Source: Pseudomonadota bacterium
Lineage (GTDB): Bacteria > Pseudomonadota > Alphaproteobacteria > Rhizobiales > Aestuariivirgaceae
Length of the DNA: 64,000 nt
Direction: 5' to 3'
Assembly: GCA_020161855.1 (NCBI GenBank)
Contig: JAIUNJ010000001.1
Coordinates: forward strand, 620,001-684,000
The notes under the pieces are model-generated. The model did not search any database, had not been told where the DNA came from, and was given only the letters and a program-made list of their open reading frames with translations. Below, piece after piece: positions 28,699-34,889 of the stretch (position 1 is its first letter; each line of letters begins with the position of its first letter). The position numbers were made by a program, and so were the translations under genes.

Positions 28699-29604
28699 GT
28701 GACGCCATTCGCCATCGCCGGCATCCAGATGAACCTCAACCATGGCTCGAACATCGAGGCCATGCGGCAGCGGATCGACCTCACCATGCATCTCTATCCT
28801 TGGGTGCAGATGGTGCTGTTCTCGGAACTGGCCTGCTACGGGCCGCTCCTGCACCACGCCCAGCCGCTGCCCGGCAATGCCGAGGCGGCCTTCCAGGAGA
28901 TGGCGCGGCACCATCGCATCTGGCTCATCAACGGCTCAATGTATGAGCGCCGCGAGGGCGGCATCTACAACACCACCTCGATCATCAATCCGCAGGGCGA
29001 GGTGATCGGGCGCTACCGCAAGATGTTCCCCTTCGTGCCGCTGGAACAGGGCGTGACACCGGGTGACGAATTCTTCGTCTTCGACGTGGAAGGGGCGGGC
29101 CGCTTCGGCATGCTCAACTGCTACGACATCTGGTTCCCCGAAACCTCGCGCCAGCTCACCGCCATGGGGGCCGAGGTGATCCTGCATCCGGTGATGACGC
29201 ACACGATCGACCGCGACGTGGACATCGCCATCAGCCACGCCACCTCGGCGATGATGCAGGCCTATGTCTTCGATGTGAACGGGCTGGGGGCTGGCGGCAA
29301 CGGGCAATCCTGCGTGTTCGATCCTTCCGGGCGGCAGCTGCACCGGGGCGACAATTCCGAACAGATCATTCCGATCGAGATCGACTTCGAGCAGGTGCGG
29401 CGCAGCCGCGAGCGCGGCATCCGCGGCTTGGGCCAGATGGCCAAAAGCTTCCGCGACCGCCCGGCGCAGTTCCCGGTCTATGGGCCGGGCTTCGACACGG
29501 GCTATCTCGATTCACTCGGCCCCGTGGCAACGCCGCGCCGCGTCGATGCGCCAGCACCGGTCAATGTGACGACGCTGCCGGTGCGAAGGAGCTTTGTGGG
29601 GTAG
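28699..29604 (+). CDS. Carbon-nitrogen hydrolase (nitrilase superfamily)
   Basis: 301 residues from a GTG with an AGGAGG ribosome site. The Glu-Lys-Cys triad is E43 (LFSELACYG), K108 (RYRKMFPF) and C141 (LNCYDIWFPE). It hydrolyses an amide or nitrile; the substrate is unknown. The C-terminal 57 residues, after the catalytic fold, are repeated in a second fragment at 30362-30595, on the far side of a toxin-antitoxin pair. Confidence 0.88.
   Translation: MTPFAIAGIQMNLNHGSNIEAMRQRIDLTMHLYPWVQMVLFSELACYGPLLHHAQPLPGNAEAAFQEMARHHRIWLINGSMYERREGGIYNTTSIINPQGEVIGRYRKMFPFVPLEQGVTPGDEFFVFDVEGAGRFGMLNCYDIWFPETSRQLTAMGAEVILHPVMTHTIDRDVDIAISHATSAMMQAYVFDVNGLGAGGNGQSCVFDPSGRQLHRGDNSEQIIPIEIDFEQVRRSRERGIRGLGQMAKSFRDRPAQFPVYGPGFDTGYLDSLGPVATPRRVDAPAPVNVTTLPVRRSFVG
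29435..29601 (+). repeat. Direct repeat, copy 1 (3' end of the C-N hydrolase gene)
   Basis: 167 bp, about 90 % identical by eye to 30381-30547 with no net gap. It codes for the last 55 or so residues of the hydrolase. The two copies enclose the toxin-antitoxin pair. The last 28 bp (about 29574-29601, ending GAGCTTTGTGGGG) are identical in both copies. Confidence 0.9.
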
Positions 29605-29620
29605 GCTTGAAAGTTTCCGG

Positions 29621-29643
29621 ATTTTCCGTATATTGCGGAAAAT
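29621..29643. promoter_or_regulatory. Operator/promoter of the toxin-antitoxin pair
   Basis: ATTTTCCG (29621-29628) and CGGAAAAT (29636-29643) are perfect 8-bp arms around TATATTG. The spacer supplies a likely -10 (TATATT, 29629-29634), so antitoxin binding would block the promoter. It ends 14 bp before the antitoxin ATG, as expected for an autoregulated TA operon. Confidence 0.65.
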
Positions 29644-29657
29644 AGGAGACAGCCTCA

Positions 29658-29915
29658 ATGGTCACCATTACTGCCGCCGAGCTGCAGAAGAAATTCGGGC
29701 AATACCGCGAAATCGCCATCCGCGAGCCGGTGTCCATCACCCATCACGGGCGGGAGTCGCTCGTCGTCATGTCGGCGCAGGAATATCAGCGGCTCAAGGC
29801 CCTCGACACGCGCCGCGCCTATCATGCCCATGCGCTGCCGGATGAAATCCTCGCCGAACTCGACAAGGGTTATCAGGGCGAGGCAACGCCTGAACTCGAT
29901 CATTTGATGAAGTGA
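29658..29915 (+). CDS. Phd/YefM-family antitoxin
   Basis: 85 residues. The N-terminal Phd/YefM DNA-binding fold is recognisable: ITAAELQKKFGQYREIA, then PVSITHHGRESLVVMSAQEYQRL. A C-terminal tail is the likely toxin-binding part. Strong ribosome site TAGGAG. The toxin-like gene starts 4 bp after its stop. A perfect palindrome in the promoter suits autoregulation. Confidence 0.85.
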   Translation: MVTITAAELQKKFGQYREIAIREPVSITHHGRESLVVMSAQEYQRLKALDTRRAYHAHALPDEILAELDKGYQGEATPELDHLMK

Positions 29916-29919
29916 GCCC

Positions 29920-30357
29920 GTGGTGCTGGAGCCCCGGCCCGGCCTCGTGCTGCGCTATGACTTCCTGTGGAAGGACGAGCGCGCAGCAGGCCAGCTGCAT
30001 GGCCGCAAGGACCGGCCCTGCGCGATTGTCGTGGTGGCGGGCGAGAAGCCGGACGGCAGTCGCGATGTGGTGCTCTGCCCCGTCACCCACTCCCCACCAG
30101 GCCCTGGCGAAACCGCCGTGCCTGTCCCGCTCGCGGTGGCGCGCCATCTTGGGCTTGATGACGCGCCCTGCTGGATCAAGACCGATCAGGTGAATGTGCT
30201 GCACTGGGAGAAGGGGCTCATTCCGCATGGCGTCATGCCTGCGCGCAAGGACGCCTGGGCTTATGGCATGATCCCGCAGGCGCTGGGCAAGCAGGTGTTC
30301 GATCAATTGCGCGAGAAGGCGCGGGCGGGAAGATTGGCATCGGTGCGGCGCGAGTAG
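29920..30357 (+). CDS. PemK/MazF-like toxin candidate
   Basis: 145 residues from a GTG. The N-terminal pattern (GLVLRYDFLWK ... GRKDRPCAIVVV) resembles the SH3-like barrel of PemK/MazF endoribonucleases, including the RPC/RPA turn before a hydrophobic strand. Position 4 bp after a Phd/YefM antitoxin supports a toxin role. Pairing of a Phd-type antitoxin with a PemK-like partner rather than Doc or RelE is a mixed combination. The catalytic residues are not certain, hence moderate confidence. Confidence 0.65.
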   Translation: MVLEPRPGLVLRYDFLWKDERAAGQLHGRKDRPCAIVVVAGEKPDGSRDVVLCPVTHSPPGPGETAVPVPLAVARHLGLDDAPCWIKTDQVNVLHWEKGLIPHGVMPARKDAWAYGMIPQALGKQVFDQLREKARAGRLASVRRE

Positions 30358-30361
30358 CGCA

Positions 30362-30595
30362 ATGCGACGTGTGATCGGTGAGATGGCCAGGAACTTCCGT
30401 GACCGCCCGGCGCAGTTCCCGTCTATTGGGGCGGGTTTCGACACGGGCTATCTCGAGTCACGCGGCCCGGTGGCAACGCCGCGCCGCGTCGACGCGCCGG
30501 CACCGGTCAATGTGACCACGCTGCCGGTGCGAAGGAGCTTTGTGGGGAGGGAAGACAGATACAGAAAAGGCGAAGCACTTAGATTAATTGAGTAG
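30362..30595 (+). pseudogene. Fragment duplicating the C-terminus of the C-N hydrolase
   Basis: A 77-codon frame whose residues 8-62 repeat the last part of the nitrilase-family protein (FRDRPAQFP, GFDTGYL, GPVATPRRVDAPAPVN). The catalytic fold is absent, so it is not functional as a hydrolase. The frame then runs 15 codons into AT-rich sequence, which marks the edge of the methyltransferase cassette. It is a scar of gene duplication or of an insertion. Confidence 0.85.
30381..30547 (+). repeat. Direct repeat, copy 2
   Basis: 167-bp partner of 29435-29601 with about 17 mismatches by eye. Base composition changes sharply to AT-rich right after its end. This suggests the copy lies at the junction of an imported segment. 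Confidence 0.9.
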
Positions 30596-30606
30596 ATAGA
30601 GCGATC

Positions 30607-32340
30607 CTAAGAGAAGTAGGTGCCAAATATCTTTTCTGCCATTCGATTGTATTGACTGGATCGGTACAAGCCAAAATCAAAGCTATCTATTCCTTTGACT
30701 TTCTTTGCAATTGCCGATTGGTCGAGATTGATTTTGCTCTCAACAAGAAGCCGAGTAAGAATTAGAAAGCCGTTAACTTGAGTGGTGGTTAACAGTCTCT
30801 TGGCCACTTTCTTATCCGTCGTCCAGCGATCAGCACTGACGTTCTGTTTAATGGCCGAGAGAACTGTATTGATAGAATCCGAGCAATACTCAATATAGGC
30901 TTTCAGAGCATCAATCCCCTTTCCACTTTTCAATTTGTTTTTACCAGTATGACTCCAAGTCGAAAAAAGCGAGTCATCACCAGACAGTTTCACGAGCGGC
31001 TTGAGTCCGTAGCTTACAATTGAAGACGTCTTCAGTTTGTCGGTCTCATAGAAATGTTGCTGGATGAAACCTGTCAATGGACCTTTTCTCGCGAGCGCAG
31101 ATAAAACTCTGGAAGCTATCGATTCTGGAGAGAGAGGATCTAAGACAACTCCTATTGCTTGCTTTAGGTCGGACTTAGCATTCGTTTGGTTTGAGTTTAT
31201 CTCCAAGAATAGTCTTGCTTCGAACTGCTCGCGCTCTTCAGATGAGATATTCTGTGGAAAAATGATACCAGTGATCAAAAGGTTCTGCTGTATCCGCAAT
31301 TTTGCGATTTCTGGATCATCTACAATCGTTTCGTGATACGCAAAAATGCGGTGCTGCCCATCCACAATCCCTACACTGTTCTGAGCAAATGGAATCTTGA
31401 TAATCACTGGCGATGTGGTGGTTAAATTAGAAGTTTCAACAGTATTGCCCTTTTTGTCCAAGGGTTTCACGTCTGAAGGCAGCGTAACAACAATATTGTT
31501 GATGAAAACTCGCTTTTGATCTTTTAAGTAGTGACGTATGGCTTCGATCTTTTTCTTCGAGATCATTCGTTGATACAAATTTATTGACTCTCGCCAGCCT
31601 TCCTTCCGAAGAACGTAACAGGTTTTAAGTAAGGCCTCTGGGTCTGCATAAAAGGTGATAACTTTGTATCCGCTGTCGAAGTGCGAGTGCGATTCAGGTA
31701 ATACAGAGCCGTGATAGTCTCGTGACTGTGTTGCAACGTTGATCTTACCGTCGTCGCCAATTTTCGCGGCATCTATCTCTAGAAAATGAAAGAGTTCGTG
31801 GCGTGTAGATTTCCTGATAGCCTCAACTACGGAAGTGAAGTATCGCAGAATTGGATAGTCCATATATATAGGACCGGGGACATTTTCTTTGTAGTGCTCG
31901 TCAAAATCGAAGCGTGAGCAGTAAAGAACTCTAATCAGCAATGAAGATGGATGGTATTGTGTGTCTAATATTTTTGTGATTGCAGGAAACGAGGATTTTA
32001 GAAACGTGATAAACCCCGTAGGGTTGGCAAATACCTTATCATATAATATCTTCTTCAGCTTAAGGTGCTCGCCGACAGCCGAAGATTGAGTTGTCGTATA
32101 CTCCGCAAAAACAAATACATTCTCATATATGAACAGGTCATCGAAATCCGATTTCTGACCTTCGAAAATAAACTCCTTGTCGGAAAGGAAGCCAACTCTC
32201 TTAAAGCCGCAAAGATTGAATACGCTCCGCACCCCTTTTCGGTGATCAGCTTTGAGTTTCGCTCTAGCTTTCTCTTCCGCCGAAAGTTTTTTCTTTTTTT
32301 TCGTTTTGGGTTTTGGCTTCTTTTGCGAGCTTTTTGACAT
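30607..32340 (-). CDS. DGQHR-domain protein with PD-(D/E)XK-like N-terminus
   Basis: 577 residues from an ATG that overlaps the methyltransferase stop (TAATG). The N-terminus is very Lys-rich. Residues 35-100 look like a restriction-endonuclease core: a helix ending NLCGF, strands with D65/D67/D68, then FVFAEYT with E80 and Thr82 where Lys is usual. The DGQHR motif (327-331, VDGQHRIFAY) and the companion EINSNQTNAKSDL (380-392) define the DndB/DGQHR family, related to ParB-like folds in DNA phosphorothioation and 7-deazaguanine systems. The gene is AT-rich, unlike its neighbours, and so probably imported. Not DndB itself: no dnd genes are present and it is larger. Confidence 0.75.
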   Translation of the reverse strand: MSKSSQKKPKPKTKKKKKLSAEEKARAKLKADHRKGVRSVFNLCGFKRVGFLSDKEFIFEGQKSDFDDLFIYENVFVFAEYTTTQSSAVGEHLKLKKILYDKVFANPTGFITFLKSSFPAITKILDTQYHPSSLLIRVLYCSRFDFDEHYKENVPGPIYMDYPILRYFTSVVEAIRKSTRHELFHFLEIDAAKIGDDGKINVATQSRDYHGSVLPESHSHFDSGYKVITFYADPEALLKTCYVLRKEGWRESINLYQRMISKKKIEAIRHYLKDQKRVFINNIVVTLPSDVKPLDKKGNTVETSNLTTTSPVIIKIPFAQNSVGIVDGQHRIFAYHETIVDDPEIAKLRIQQNLLITGIIFPQNISSEEREQFEARLFLEINSNQTNAKSDLKQAIGVVLDPLSPESIASRVLSALARKGPLTGFIQQHFYETDKLKTSSIVSYGLKPLVKLSGDDSLFSTWSHTGKNKLKSGKGIDALKAYIEYCSDSINTVLSAIKQNVSADRWTTDKKVAKRLLTTTQVNGFLILTRLLVESKINLDQSAIAKKVKGIDSFDFGLYRSSQYNRMAEKIFGTYFS

Positions 32341-33305
32341 TACTCGGCTGCCATTTTGATCCATTCTGCTGGCGGTCGAGCTACTCGATCAGCCACGTTC
32401 GGCTCTCTAACTTCTTGACCAGATTTCCTAAGTTTTATGGATCCAACTCTGAGCTTCTTGACGCGTTTCTTCGTTAGCTCGACGTATTCCTTGCAGCGGT
32501 CAATTGCCACTGACTTTCGGCCGAGTTTAATGGCGGCGATTGCAGAGGTGCCGGCACCGACAAAGGGATCCAGTACGACATCACCTGACTTGGTGAGCGC
32601 CAACACAAAACGCTCGGCAAGTTCGTGAGGAAACTGGCAGGGATGATCTGTTAGTTCGGGATGATTGGCTTTAACGTTGGGGATGTCCCAAATCGGGTCC
32701 AAGAAAAAGTTCTCCTCTGGCGTGAATGTCCAATAGTCAGATGGATTCTTGCCGAGAGGATTGCCGCTAGGAGTGCCCGCCCGTTGAGTCCCCTTCGAAC
32801 TAGAATGTCTCTTTCCAGGATAAAGTTGAGGTACGCGTACCGGATCGAGGTTGAAGGTGTAATCATCCGACTTTGTAAGCCATAACACTGTTTCATAGCG
32901 TCCAGAGAATCGCCGTTTTGCGTGCAGGCCGAAATTAAACTTCCATATAATTCTATTTCTGAGTTTGAATCCGTATTTGAGAAACAGTCCGTAAAAATAG
33001 TAATCCAGAGGATACACGGCGCCTTGGTCAACAAAGTTTCCGACCTGCCAGCAAATACTTCCCTTTGGCCCCACCTTCTTGCACAACTCTCCGACAATTG
33101 GATCCAGCCAACTAACATACTCGTCGAGCGACATAACTCTATCGCGCTCATAGATTTTCCGAAGGTTGTACGGAGGCGAGGTCAAGACAAGTTGGATTGA
33201 TCCATCGTCTATGAGCTTCAGTGCGTCTGAAACATCAGCTTCGATCAGTCGTAGGTCACCTTCTTTTGCAGTCCAGCAGCGTGGCTTTTTGGTCTTGCGC
33301 CCCAT
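32340..33305 (-). CDS. Site-specific DNA methyltransferase (N6-adenine or N4-cytosine)
   Basis: 321 residues. Motif IV TSPPYN (42-47) precedes the SAM-binding motif I DPFVGAGTSA (246-255), the beta-class order. The segment IWDIPNVKANHPELTDHPCQFPHELAERFV is the conserved pre-motif-I region. The central 135-205 is the likely target recognition part. TSPPY suits m4C or m6A. It is coupled by a TAATG overlap to the DGQHR gene and shares its AT-rich composition. No separate endonuclease gene is present. Confidence 0.92.
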   Translation of the reverse strand: MGRKTKKPRCWTAKEGDLRLIEADVSDALKLIDDGSIQLVLTSPPYNLRKIYERDRVMSLDEYVSWLDPIVGELCKKVGPKGSICWQVGNFVDQGAVYPLDYYFYGLFLKYGFKLRNRIIWKFNFGLHAKRRFSGRYETVLWLTKSDDYTFNLDPVRVPQLYPGKRHSSSKGTQRAGTPSGNPLGKNPSDYWTFTPEENFFLDPIWDIPNVKANHPELTDHPCQFPHELAERFVLALTKSGDVVLDPFVGAGTSAIAAIKLGRKSVAIDRCKEYVELTKKRVKKLRVGSIKLRKSGQEVREPNVADRVARPPAEWIKMAAE

Positions 33306-33431
33306 CGTCGACCCTCGTGGTGCAAATCAGCTATCTGACTACCTTATGTAGTAATATTTTGCCATAGGCAACTAATGCAACTTGTGCGACTTGGGAGTTG
33401 CGAAGGGGGCGCCCGCCTTATCCGTCTAAAA

Positions 33432-34889
33432 TCAAAACATCTTCTGATCGCCGAATGCCGCGGGCGGTGTCGGGGCTGAGGAGCCGGTGAGCGGTGTTGC
33501 CTGGAATTCGCGGTGGATGGCCGAGACCCAGGCCTTGGCGCGGTCGGTGAGCTTGCGGTCGTCGGTCTGGAAGCGCCCACGCGAGACAAGGATGCCCATG
33601 TCGGCGCCATGATAGCGGTAGTCTCCCGCCGTGTAGACACGCAGATAGAAGGCCTCCTCCTCGCCCGAGACGAGGAACCAGTCGATGGACTTGCGCACCA
33701 GCCTTATGTTGCCCTTGTCATCCATGCGGTAGATGCCCGATGAGGGCGCCTTGGTGATCATCTCCACGCGGTCCACCGGATACTTGAGGATGAGCTGGCT
33801 CCAGTTATCGAAGTCGGACCAGCGGGCCTGCACCTTGGCGAGATCGATCTCCCAGTCCACGTCCATGAACTCGAGCAGGTGGAACATGTAGACCGGGCAG
33901 CCGCCATAGGTGGAGGTGATGAGGTTCGTCATGGGCGAGGCGCCGGAGATGCGCGGGTTGATCTCGCCGAGATAGACCTCGCGCGTGTCGGTATCGATGA
34001 GGAAGTCCATGCAGAAGGCGCCGCGATAGCCGGCCTTGTAGAGCCGGTCGCCGAGCTTCTGGGCCATGCGCTGCACCGCCTTGCGCTCCTTCTCCAGCCC
34101 GTCGTGGAACACATCATTGCCGCACCAGCCGCCCTTGTAGGGTGTGACCTCGGCGAAACCCGTGATGTCGGTCTGCATGGGGCCTACCAGCGTGCCATGG
34201 CTCGTGGCGATGGCTTCCAGCGTGCCCGGCAGGTGGTTGATGCGGCGCATGACCTTGAGCTGCTCGTTGACGAGATGCTCGGCATTCTTGTTCCAGTCTT
34301 CCTCCGACTTGATGAAGAAGGTAGTGCGGCCGGAATCGCCATAGGGCGTCTGCACCACGAGATCGGGCCCGAGCTTCGCCGCGGTGGCGAGCTTGCGGAG
34401 CTGCTCATAGGATTTGGCGCGGCCCATGGTGTTGGGGGCGCTCTTGATGCCGGCCTCGTTGCCGAGCTTCGTCGTGATGATCTTGGAGTCGATGTGCTTG
34501 CGGAGTTTGGCGGGCGGCAGCGCAATGGTCTGGCCCAGTTCCTTGGCCAGCGCCTCCGTTTCCTCGTCGAACATGACGAGGAGGAGATAGCCGGGCCCAC
34601 GCTCCTTCAGCCTGGCGCGCACATCCTTGTGGCGCAGGAGATAGTTGTTCACGTCCTCGATGGAGCGGAACTCATGGGGCCCATGCTCGCGCGGCACGAA
34701 GATCTTGGGGTGGCTGCCGTCGAAGCTGTCGAAGAAGTTGATGTATTCGAAATTGTTCACCCAGCGGCCGAGCCCGAGGATGTTGTAGGGCGTGGGCGAG
34801 AGGAAGGTGATGGGCGTGCGGTTGCGGCGGAAGAAGGCGTAGATGTCGGAGAGGCTCCGGAGCTTTTCCCTGGCGGGCCTTCTGGCCAT
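33432..34889 (-). CDS. ATP-grasp domain protein of unknown function
   Basis: 485 residues from the ATG preceded by AGAGGGGG. The ATP-grasp core spans about 110-340: nucleotide-binding YGDSGRTTFFI, and metal-binding AFCMDFLIDTD with EINPRISGASPMTN. It resembles biotin carboxylase-like ligases without a biotin or carboxyltransferase partner. The N-terminal 100 residues are specific. The substrate is unknown. The GC-rich composition places it outside the AT-rich cassette, 126 bp away. Confidence 0.8.
   Translation of the reverse strand: MARRPAREKLRSLSDIYAFFRRNRTPITFLSPTPYNILGLGRWVNNFEYINFFDSFDGSHPKIFVPREHGPHEFRSIEDVNNYLLRHKDVRARLKERGPGYLLLVMFDEETEALAKELGQTIALPPAKLRKHIDSKIITTKLGNEAGIKSAPNTMGRAKSYEQLRKLATAAKLGPDLVVQTPYGDSGRTTFFIKSEEDWNKNAEHLVNEQLKVMRRINHLPGTLEAIATSHGTLVGPMQTDITGFAEVTPYKGGWCGNDVFHDGLEKERKAVQRMAQKLGDRLYKAGYRGAFCMDFLIDTDTREVYLGEINPRISGASPMTNLITSTYGGCPVYMFHLLEFMDVDWEIDLAKVQARWSDFDNWSQLILKYPVDRVEMITKAPSSGIYRMDDKGNIRLVRKSIDWFLVSGEEEAFYLRVYTAGDYRYHGADMGILVSRGRFQTDDRKLTDRAKAWVSAIHREFQATPLTGSSAPTPPAAFGDQKMF

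What the first reader, a model, noticed from the sequence alone, without database searches (positions are those of the whole stretch)
30607..33305. Two-gene DGQHR/DNA-methyltransferase cassette with a nuclease-like N-terminus
A beta-class DNA methyltransferase is coupled by TAATG to a 577-residue DGQHR-family protein, and the pair sits in an AT-rich patch within GC-rich surroundings. DGQHR proteins are otherwise known from phosphorothioation (DndB) and 7-deazaguanine DNA systems, but no dnd or dpd genes are here. Residues 35-100 of the DGQHR protein resemble a PD-(D/E)XK core (D68 ... E80-x-T82), so it could be the restriction partner of the methyltransferase. No other endonuclease is present. 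I infer a compact modification/defence module.
Basis: partly seen in the sequence, partly recalled or inferred. Interest (0 to 1): 0.78.

Follow-up and report, generated by a model that had tools for sequence, protein, structure and literature searches.

The report
Methyltransferase paired with NTPase-nuclease fusion
Two adjacent bacterial genes, a DNA-marking enzyme and a protein that joins a predicted DNA-cutting domain to a ParB-like nucleotide-binding domain, travel together between bacteria, plasmids and phages and look like an undescribed form of restriction-modification immunity.

Summary
Window 32340-33305(-) is a beta-class DNA methyltransferase; 30607-32364(-) is a DGQHR protein coupled to it by TAATG, in a 44.7% G+C stretch (rest of window 62.5%) absent from the same site in four genus mates. 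(1) Of 19 genome relatives retrieved, 17 have a methyltransferase directly upstream and co-oriented, one adjacent and convergent, one 4.5 kb away; both full-length plasmid relatives and an Akkermansia phage have an adjacent one. (2) The N-terminal domain models with PD-(D/E)XK topology; its top Foldseek hits are such nucleases (best E 0.002; none <=0.001), and its profile aligns (hhalign prob 91.9; control 0.2) with N-termini of longer DGQHR proteins bearing D...ECK, 4 of 6 of which also adjoin a methyltransferase. D75, N82, E88, T90, H100 and K104 are invariant in 24 of 24 sequences; the usual lysine is T90. The same methyltransferase subfamily adjoins BglII/BstYI-type endonucleases elsewhere. 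I infer that the DGQHR protein is the restriction partner: a nuclease fused to a ParB-like NTPase, reminiscent of DndI/SspE/GmrSD but with a different nuclease and methylation as the mark. Cutting, target and NTP use are untested.

The parts
32340..33305 (-). Beta-class DNA methyltransferase (321 aa), motif IV TSPPYN, motif I DPFVGAGTS
   Evidence: M.RsrI 1eg2 6.7e-26; SPPY invariant in the 18 rows aligned
30607..32364 (-). DGQHR protein, 585 aa (577 aa from ATG at 32340); predicted PD-(D/E)XK + ParB-like NTPase + helical C-terminus
31780..32280 (-). Predicted PD-(D/E)XK-type domain, residues 29-195
   Evidence: AlphaFold2 models; Foldseek; hhalign
32053..32142 (-). Candidate active-site residues D75, N82, E88-x-T90, H100, K104 (invariant in 24 of 24 sequences)
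30997..31656 (-). DGQHR (ParB/Srx-type NTP-binding) domain, residues 237-456
   Evidence: NCBIfam TIGR03187; Foldseek top hit of the full model pNOB8-like ParB-N 5k5d, E 0.033
31348..31362 (-). D335-G-Q-H-R339 motif
   Evidence: invariant in the 20 rows
32338..32342 (-). TAATG coupling of MTase stop and DGQHR start
29605..33431 (.). Insertion between two convergent genes (carbon-nitrogen hydrolase and ATP-grasp) relative to four genus mates; holds a TA pair, a repeat of the hydrolase gene's tail, and the MTase/DGQHR cassette
29658..29915 (+). Phd/YefM-type antitoxin (neighbour, not part of the module)
   Evidence: 4.5e-10
29920..30357 (+). PemK/MazF-like toxin, weak match below Pfam cut-off (neighbour)
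   Evidence: 0.0013, 19.4 against 23.1 bits
30381..30550 (+). Second copy of the hydrolase gene tail, 91% to 29435-29605
   Evidence: 172 columns, 91.3%

Best explanation
A mobile two-gene restriction-modification module. The beta-class methyltransferase marks host DNA at a specific site. The DGQHR protein is the restriction partner: its N-terminal PD-(D/E)XK-type domain cuts or nicks DNA, and its ParB-like DGQHR domain binds a nucleotide and gates that cutting according to whether the DNA carries the mark. Shown here: the gene pair and its recurrence in different phyla and replicons, the DGQHR family assignment, and invariance of the candidate active-site residues. Predicted here: the nuclease fold. 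Inferred: nuclease activity, NTP gating, methylation-based self/non-self discrimination, and a possible GATC-centred target (because sister methyltransferases are paired with BglII/BstYI-type enzymes).
For: Linkage: 17 of 19 genome loci have an MTase directly upstream and co-oriented; both full-length plasmid relatives and phage Chantilly have an adjacent one. Fold: N-terminal model pLDDT 88.9 with alpha-beta(3)-alpha-beta order; top Foldseek rows Cdn1 (prob 1.00), R2 endonuclease, VC1899, BspD6I subunits, Bax1, SduA, BstEII, Card1. Homology: hhalign of the N-terminal domain alone against N-termini of six longer DGQHR proteins prob 91.9, E 7e-7, against the unrelated MTase alignment prob 0.2; whole proteins prob 99.6, E 1.2e-23; both alignments put D75/E88/T90 on the D...EC[KTR] motif. 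One of the six hits Pfam Card1_endonuc at 4.8e-5, under its cut-off. Four of the six adjoin an MTase of another class, MT-A70 or D12. Conservation: D75, N82, E88, T90, H100, K104 in 24 of 24. Slot argument: of 10 plasmid neighbourhoods of this MTase subfamily seen, 5 have a BglII-family gene beside it (one by a weak match), 2 have the DGQHR gene. DGQHR and MTase distances correlate, r=0.78 over 17 pairs, 0 of 5000 permutations as high. Mobile context: conjugative and mobilizable plasmids, Sphingomonas prophage, phage Chantilly, empty site in genus mates.
Against: The motif lysine is threonine in all 24. Neither model has a PDB match at E<=0.001, and the full-model list also holds unrelated proteins such as AcrB; sequence profiles find no solved relative. 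In L030 the MTase is 4.5 kb away next to its own BglII-like gene, and in Spirosoma a BglII-type gene lies between the MTase and a DGQHR-type N-terminus, so the DGQHR protein need not be the only nuclease. Four of 19 loci use a 421-428 aa MTase only ~25% identical, so partners were swapped. In 3 of the 10 plasmid neighbourhoods no restriction partner was recognised. DGQHR-paired MTases are not significantly clustered by label on the MTase tree (91 of 500 shuffles as low). The distance correlation does not control for shared ancestry. No activity data exist.
Confidence: 0.64

Rival explanations
1. Modification-dependent effector (SspE-like): the methyl mark on host or phage DNA stimulates the NTPase and so licenses the nuclease, rather than protecting from it.
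For: The related DGQQR proteins SspE and DndI change NTPase activity on sensing a DNA mark; SspE needs the mark for activity (PMC11662687 passages). DGQHR/DUF262 similarity is reported in PMC4619093 (passages).
Against: Sister MTases occupy BglII-type R-M operons, where methylation is expected to protect (established for such systems, not tested here). No modified-base-binding domain was recognised in the DGQHR protein.
Confidence: 0.14
2. Regulator or accessory of the methyltransferase (DndB/DpdB-like): the DGQHR protein controls expression or site access of the MTase, and the N-terminal domain is a dead nuclease used for DNA binding.
For: DndB is described as a transcriptional regulator (PMC4507180 passages). 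DpdB is the second-best NCBIfam hit, 7.8e-12. ExT replaces ExK.
Against: D75, N82, E88, T90, H100 and K104 stay invariant in 24 of 24 sequences down to about 30-37% identity, unlike a decaying active site. The score against the DpdB equivalog model is 44.7 against a cut-off of 300. The N-terminal ~200 aa lie outside the DndB/DpdB profile matches.
Confidence: 0.14
3. Orphan methyltransferase with an unrelated hitch-hiking gene on the same mobile element; no functional coupling.
For: Both are on mobile DNA.
Against: Overlap or close spacing and recurrence in 17 of 19 loci from Pseudomonadota and Bacteroidota, while no other gene family (ORFs of 60 aa or more) recurs in more than 3 of the 22 loci compared.
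Confidence: 0.03

Closest known systems
DndI / SspE / GmrSD (DUF262 DGQQR NTPase + HNH nuclease)
   Same: ParB/Srx-type NTPase with a DGQ[H/Q]R motif joined to a nuclease; acts with or against modified DNA (PMC11662687 and PMC4619093, passages)
   Different: Nuclease here is predicted PD-(D/E)XK-type and N-terminal, not C-terminal HNH; the mark would be base methylation from a single adjacent MTase, not phosphorothioate or glucosyl-hmC
BglII/BstYI-type Type II restriction-modification
   Same: Sister methyltransferases 45-52% identical; the endonuclease gene directly follows the MTase
   Different: The partner slot holds a 585-aa NTPase-nuclease fusion instead of a ~200-aa endonuclease
DndB / DpdB
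   Same: DGQHR domain
   Different: No DndC match in the assembly; extra N-terminal nuclease-like domain; scores far below the DpdB and DGQHR_dnd_1 equivalog cut-offs
Cdn1/Card1/Can2 and BspD6I nuclease domains
   Same: Among the best fold matches of the N-terminal domain
   Different: Only about 9-15% sequence identity in those rows; the CARF domain of the first group is absent (recalled architecture)
Long DGQHR proteins with D...ECK-type N-terminus (here L004, L005, L007, L012, L061, L062)
   Same: Same order PD-(D/E)XK-like then DGQHR; MTase neighbour in 4 of 6
   Different: 670-798 aa as called here; sub-threshold HEPN-like C-terminal matches in 4 of 6 scanned; MT-A70 or D12 MTases instead of N6_N4_Mtase

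Membership tests
DGQHR domain family (TIGR03187) | Score over curated cut-off 58.85 bits | tested here: met
   85.8 bits
Pfam DndB superfamily (PF14072) | Score over gathering cut-off 29.1 | tested here: met
   36.1 bits; 16 of the 20 aligned members match at E<=0.1
DpdB equivalog | Score over cut-off 300 | tested here: not met
   44.7 bits
DGQHR_dnd_1 (TIGR04172) | Score over cut-off 450 | tested here: not met
   36 bits; DndC unmatched in the assembly
PD-(D/E)XK nuclease superfamily | alpha-beta-beta-beta-alpha-beta core | tested here: met
   secondary-structure order in the predicted models; Foldseek neighbours, (best E 0.002, prob 1.00; none at E<=0.001)
PD-(D/E)XK nuclease superfamily | Asp ... 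Glu-x-Lys catalytic motif | tested here: inconclusive
   D75 and E88 invariant; Lys position is T90; K104 is an invariant candidate substitute; geometry could not be measured
PD-(D/E)XK nuclease superfamily | Metal-dependent DNA cleavage | not testable with these tools
   needs biochemistry
Type II-like restriction-modification | Adjacent DNA methyltransferase and nuclease genes | tested here: inconclusive
   linkage met (17 of 19); the nuclease is predicted only
Type II-like restriction-modification | Methylation blocks cleavage at the same site | not testable with these tools
   needs methylome and digestion
DUF262/GmrSD-SspE-DndI | DUF262 NTPase with C-terminal HNH (DUF1524) | tested here: not met
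   no DUF262 or DUF1524 match for the 20 members
BglII/BstYI endonucleases (PF09195) | Endonuc-BglII profile match of the nuclease | tested here: not met
   no match of the DGQHR protein

The most novel reading that the evidence does not exclude
A restriction enzyme class in which a ParB-like NTP-driven DNA clamp is fused to a PD-(D/E)XK nuclease: the clamp loads at unmethylated sites of its partner methyltransferase, closes and moves on DNA with NTP, and the nuclease cuts away from the site; the same clamp-nuclease chassis has been paired with at least four kinds of DNA methyltransferase (two N6_N4_Mtase subtypes, MT-A70, D12).
Probability: 0.27. Interest if true: 0.82.

Novelty: new variant of a known kind. 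Interest (0 to 1): 0.62.

Why it matters
DGQHR proteins are known mainly as enigmatic parts of phosphorothioate and deazaguanine systems. A two-gene system with only a methyltransferase and a DGQHR-nuclease fusion is a small setting in which to ask what a DGQHR/ParB-like NTPase does in DNA defence. It also suggests that the NTPase-plus-nuclease logic of DndI/SspE extends to ordinary base methylation with a different nuclease fold. PADLOC-DB 2.0.0 matches the DGQHR protein only in part, as DpdB/DndB, so such annotation would miss or mislabel the module.

Tried and rejected
Single-sequence scans of genome contigs and viral contigs with the window protein found no relatives; the four-row alignment found 19 and 2 loci. 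The two viral loci repeat genome loci L016 and L019 and were not counted again; L003 repeats L021. PDB by sequence: nothing for the full protein or its profile and only spurious-looking hits for the N-terminal profile (a ribosomal protein at 0.06). The N-terminal profile found no other architecture: matches in 2 of 398 genomes of the phylum, this protein (plus the C1 fragment) and its ortholog. I considered that the TA pair and the cassette form one element; they are on opposite strands, separated by a repeat of the hydrolase tail, and differ in G+C, so I treat the TA pair as a neighbour. I considered assigning the target from BglII homology: M.BglII makes AGAT(m4C)T (PMC4882945 passages), but another Endonuc-BglII system methylates RG(m6A)TCY (PMC10734518 passages), so neither base nor target is fixed; site counts in the window say nothing. 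SPPY as typical of m4C enzymes is recalled, not from a call. Label clustering on the MTase tree was not significant (3 changes; 91 of 500 shuffles as low), although 15 of 17 DGQHR-paired MTases fall in one well-supported group (100/99); L028 and L029 are near-copies. L006 was dropped from the long-DGQHR set because its open frame begins after the N-terminal domain, next to a transposase-like ORF (by eye). L007, L004, L005 came, L061 and L062, L012; the other DGQHR ORFs lacked a D...ECK-type N-terminus by eye. Plasmid MTase hits: 12 records at E<=1e-50; neighbourhoods seen for 10 of 12 (H14 and H18 not fetched). Literature: searches listed no paper whose title or shown abstract describes an MTase + DGQHR-PD-(D/E)XK pair; of the six papers holding DGQHR I looked into two. 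The library lacks most subscription journals and preprints. Papers were seen as passages only (PMC4619093, PMC4507180, PMC10853773, PMC12839542, PMC11662687, PMC13092281, PMC4882945, PMC10734518) or outline with abstract plus passages (PMC12704722); none was read whole.
Full report
WHAT IS THERE. The window holds two co-oriented genes on the minus strand. The first, 32340-33305, encodes a 321-aa DNA methyltransferase (Pfam N6_N4_Mtase 6.8e-46; closest solved relative by sequence M.RsrI, 6.7e-26). Motif IV (TSPPYN) precedes motif I, the beta order. The second, 30607-32364, encodes a 585-aa DGQHR protein (NCBIfam TIGR03187 85.8 bits over a cut-off of 58.85). G+C is 44.7% over the pair and 62.5% in the window outside 29601-33432.

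INSERTION. Of 31 genomes of the genus searched, 12 (the window's own included) hold the ATP-grasp gene; I fetched the site in seven others. In four of them (L050, L053, L054, L055) the hydrolase and ATP-grasp genes are convergent neighbours with 3, 119, 4 and 4 bases between their stops. So 29605-33431 is extra DNA relative to these: a Phd/PemK-like pair, a repeat of the hydrolase tail (91% over 172 columns) and the cassette. In two others (L049, L052) other ORFs lie between, among them a 391-aa one; in L051 the hydrolase was not found in the stretch. The DGQHR gene is rare: full-length relatives in 2 of 297 genomes of the order, the window's own included (6 of 297 had any match), and the N-terminal profile in 2 of 398 of the phylum.

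RELATIVES AND NEIGHBOURS. A four-row alignment retrieved 19 genome loci (37-59% identity), from Sphingomonas, Novosphingobium, Mesorhizobium, Stappia, Tardiphaga, Ensifer, Pseudomonas and others, and Bacteroidota such as Salegentibacter and Flavisolibacter. An MTase gene is directly upstream and co-oriented in 17 of 19. In 13 of these it is the same subfamily (46-63% identity). In four (L020, L023, L031, L034) it is a 421-428 aa N6_N4_Mtase only about 25% identical. In L033 the MTase is convergent, 33 bases away. In L030 it is 4.5 kb away, next to a BglII-like gene (3e-5, below cut-off), a ParB-like ORF (weak) and an SNF2 helicase. Both full-length plasmid relatives, of 5 plasmid records matched, have the pair, and Akkermansia phage Chantilly has a 32%-identical protein convergent with an N6_N4_Mtase. 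No other gene family recurs in more than 3 of the 22 loci compared. The survey started from close relatives that already had the pair, so it describes this subfamily and not all DGQHR proteins: most DGQHR proteins met in 385 genomes of the class were short forms without this N-terminus, by eye.

THE N-TERMINAL DOMAIN. AlphaFold2 on 20 sequences gave mean pLDDT 84.2 for the whole protein and 88.9 for residues 9-195 alone. The order is helix, strands, a strand carrying E88-x-T90, helix, strand: the PD-(D/E)XK core. Foldseek against PDB with the domain model returned, among the 50 rows shown of 423, Cdn1 (E 0.002, probability 1.00), R2 endonuclease, VC1899, N.BspD6I and R.BspD6I2, Bax1, SduA, BstEII, arenavirus and bunyavirus endonuclease proteins, Card1 and Can2, which I recall as PD-(D/E)XK nucleases. 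No match reached E<=0.001 and TM-scores were at most 0.46. With the full protein the top hit is a ParB N-domain (5k5d, E 0.033), followed by some of the same nucleases and also by unrelated proteins such as AcrB with low probability. Six longer DGQHR proteins (670-798 aa) carry [QK]IDV...[EQ]C[KTR] in their N-termini. Profile against profile, the N-terminal domains alone align with probability 91.9 and E 7e-7 over 136 columns, while the control against the MTase alignment gave 0.2; the whole proteins gave 99.6 and 1.2e-23. In both alignments D75/E88/T90 fall on D/E/K of the motif. One of the six hits Pfam Card1_endonuc at 4.8e-5, below the curated cut-off. Four of the six adjoin a methyltransferase gene: MT-A70 in L004; D12 class in L007, L061 and L062. 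L005 and L012 do not within the stretch seen.

ACTIVE SITE. D75, N82, E88, T90, H100 and K104 are identical in the 20 aligned proteins and in the Phyllobacterium, Rhizobium, Chantilly and Spirosoma sequences (24 of 24). Thr for Lys is unusual, but the position varies in the longer group too (K in four, T in one, R in one; one of them has Q for E). BglII itself uses Gln there (recalled). K104 is a candidate replacement; geometry was not available.

WHICH SLOT DOES IT FILL? Of 12 plasmid records with a close relative of this MTase (E<=1e-50) I saw 10 neighbourhoods. Two have the DGQHR gene (Phyllobacterium, Rhizobium). Five have a BglII/BstYI-type gene beside the MTase: Acinetobacter, Sphingobium, Komagataeibacter, Spirosoma, and Paracoccus by a weak match (1.6e-5). 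In three (Shinella, Neorhizobium, Paenibacillus) no partner was recognised. The chromosomal Sabulibacter locus L030 adds a weak BglII-like case (3e-5). In the cassette that slot holds the DGQHR protein. In Spirosoma both occur: MTase, BglII-type gene, then a DGQHR-type N-terminus that ends at the record's start. This is the strongest argument for a restriction role and also the clearest sign that the DGQHR protein may add to, rather than replace, an endonuclease. DGQHR and MTase distances correlate (r=0.78, 17 pairs, 0 of 5000 permutations as high; 0.70 without two rows), without control for shared descent; on the MTase tree the DGQHR label is not significantly clustered (91 of 500 shuffles as low).

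MECHANISM. DndI, a ParB-like-superfamily NTPase fused to HNH, attacks DNA lacking the mark; its ATPase is stimulated by the mark, which is proposed to release it from self DNA, whereas SspE needs the mark (PMC11662687 passages). A DndB-like protein bound ATP and GTP, and ParB-fold fusions to HNH and methyltransferase domains are described in a 2025 survey (PMC12704722 outline and passages); its main text has no occurrence of DGQHR, and the passages shown mention no PD-(D/E)XK fusion. By analogy I propose an NTP-gated nuclease guarded by methylation. Nothing here tests gating, cutting or target.

NOVELTY. Six literature searches listed no description of the pair in titles or shown abstracts. 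PADLOC-DB gives only DpdB/DndB partial matches. It would work like a restriction-modification system with a DndI-like NTPase-nuclease, but fails the tested defining features of DpdB, DGQHR_dnd_1, DUF262-HNH and BglII families. I file it as a new variant of a known kind.

Noticed in passing
own assembly C1:1-1395 (L002, L056); window 32071-32197: Contig C1 begins with 127 bases identical to the interior of the DGQHR gene, then an IS3-like element (by eye) whose end occurs once per strand in the assembly, then a cut-off ORF with a sub-threshold ResIII match and a Vsr gene. It looks like an assembly-graph trace of an IS insertion or rearrangement in the DGQHR gene in part of the sequenced DNA.
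   Followed up: partly
29435-29605 and 30381-30550: The 3' tail of the carbon-nitrogen hydrolase gene is repeated (91%) on the far side of the Phd/PemK-like pair, as if that pair had entered with its own copy of the gene end.
   Followed up: partly
L030 7793-13068, L091 4000-8510: Another arrangement around the same MTase subfamily: MTase, BglII-like gene (weak matches), a possibly ParB-like protein (sub-threshold ddrB-ParB match) and an SNF2 helicase; homologs of the last two of L030 also lie beside the DGQHR pair in Pseudomonas L031. It may be a separate multi-gene defence system.
   Followed up: partly
L016/L035, L019/L036, L087: The cassette lies between phage packaging and tail genes in Sphingomonas (L016), is found in two IMG/VR contigs (L035, L036) and lies beside the integrase of Akkermansia phage Chantilly, suggesting temperate phages carry it as cargo.
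   Followed up: partly
L010 (Spirosoma plasmid NZ_CP056033): MTase, BglII/BstYI-type gene and a DGQHR-type N-terminus are consecutive; the last reading frame ends just past the start point of the circular record, so the record may be incomplete there.
   Followed up: partly
L093 4851-5699, L094 4875-5884: Sister MTases on Shinella and Neorhizobium plasmids are followed by proteins without any Pfam match at E<=0.1, possible unrecognised endonucleases.
   Followed up: no
NZ_CP017943 record annotation (L008): The Phyllobacterium DGQHR gene is also labelled as an lmrP efflux pump by a resistance predictor in PLSDB, apparently a wrong label.
   Followed up: no
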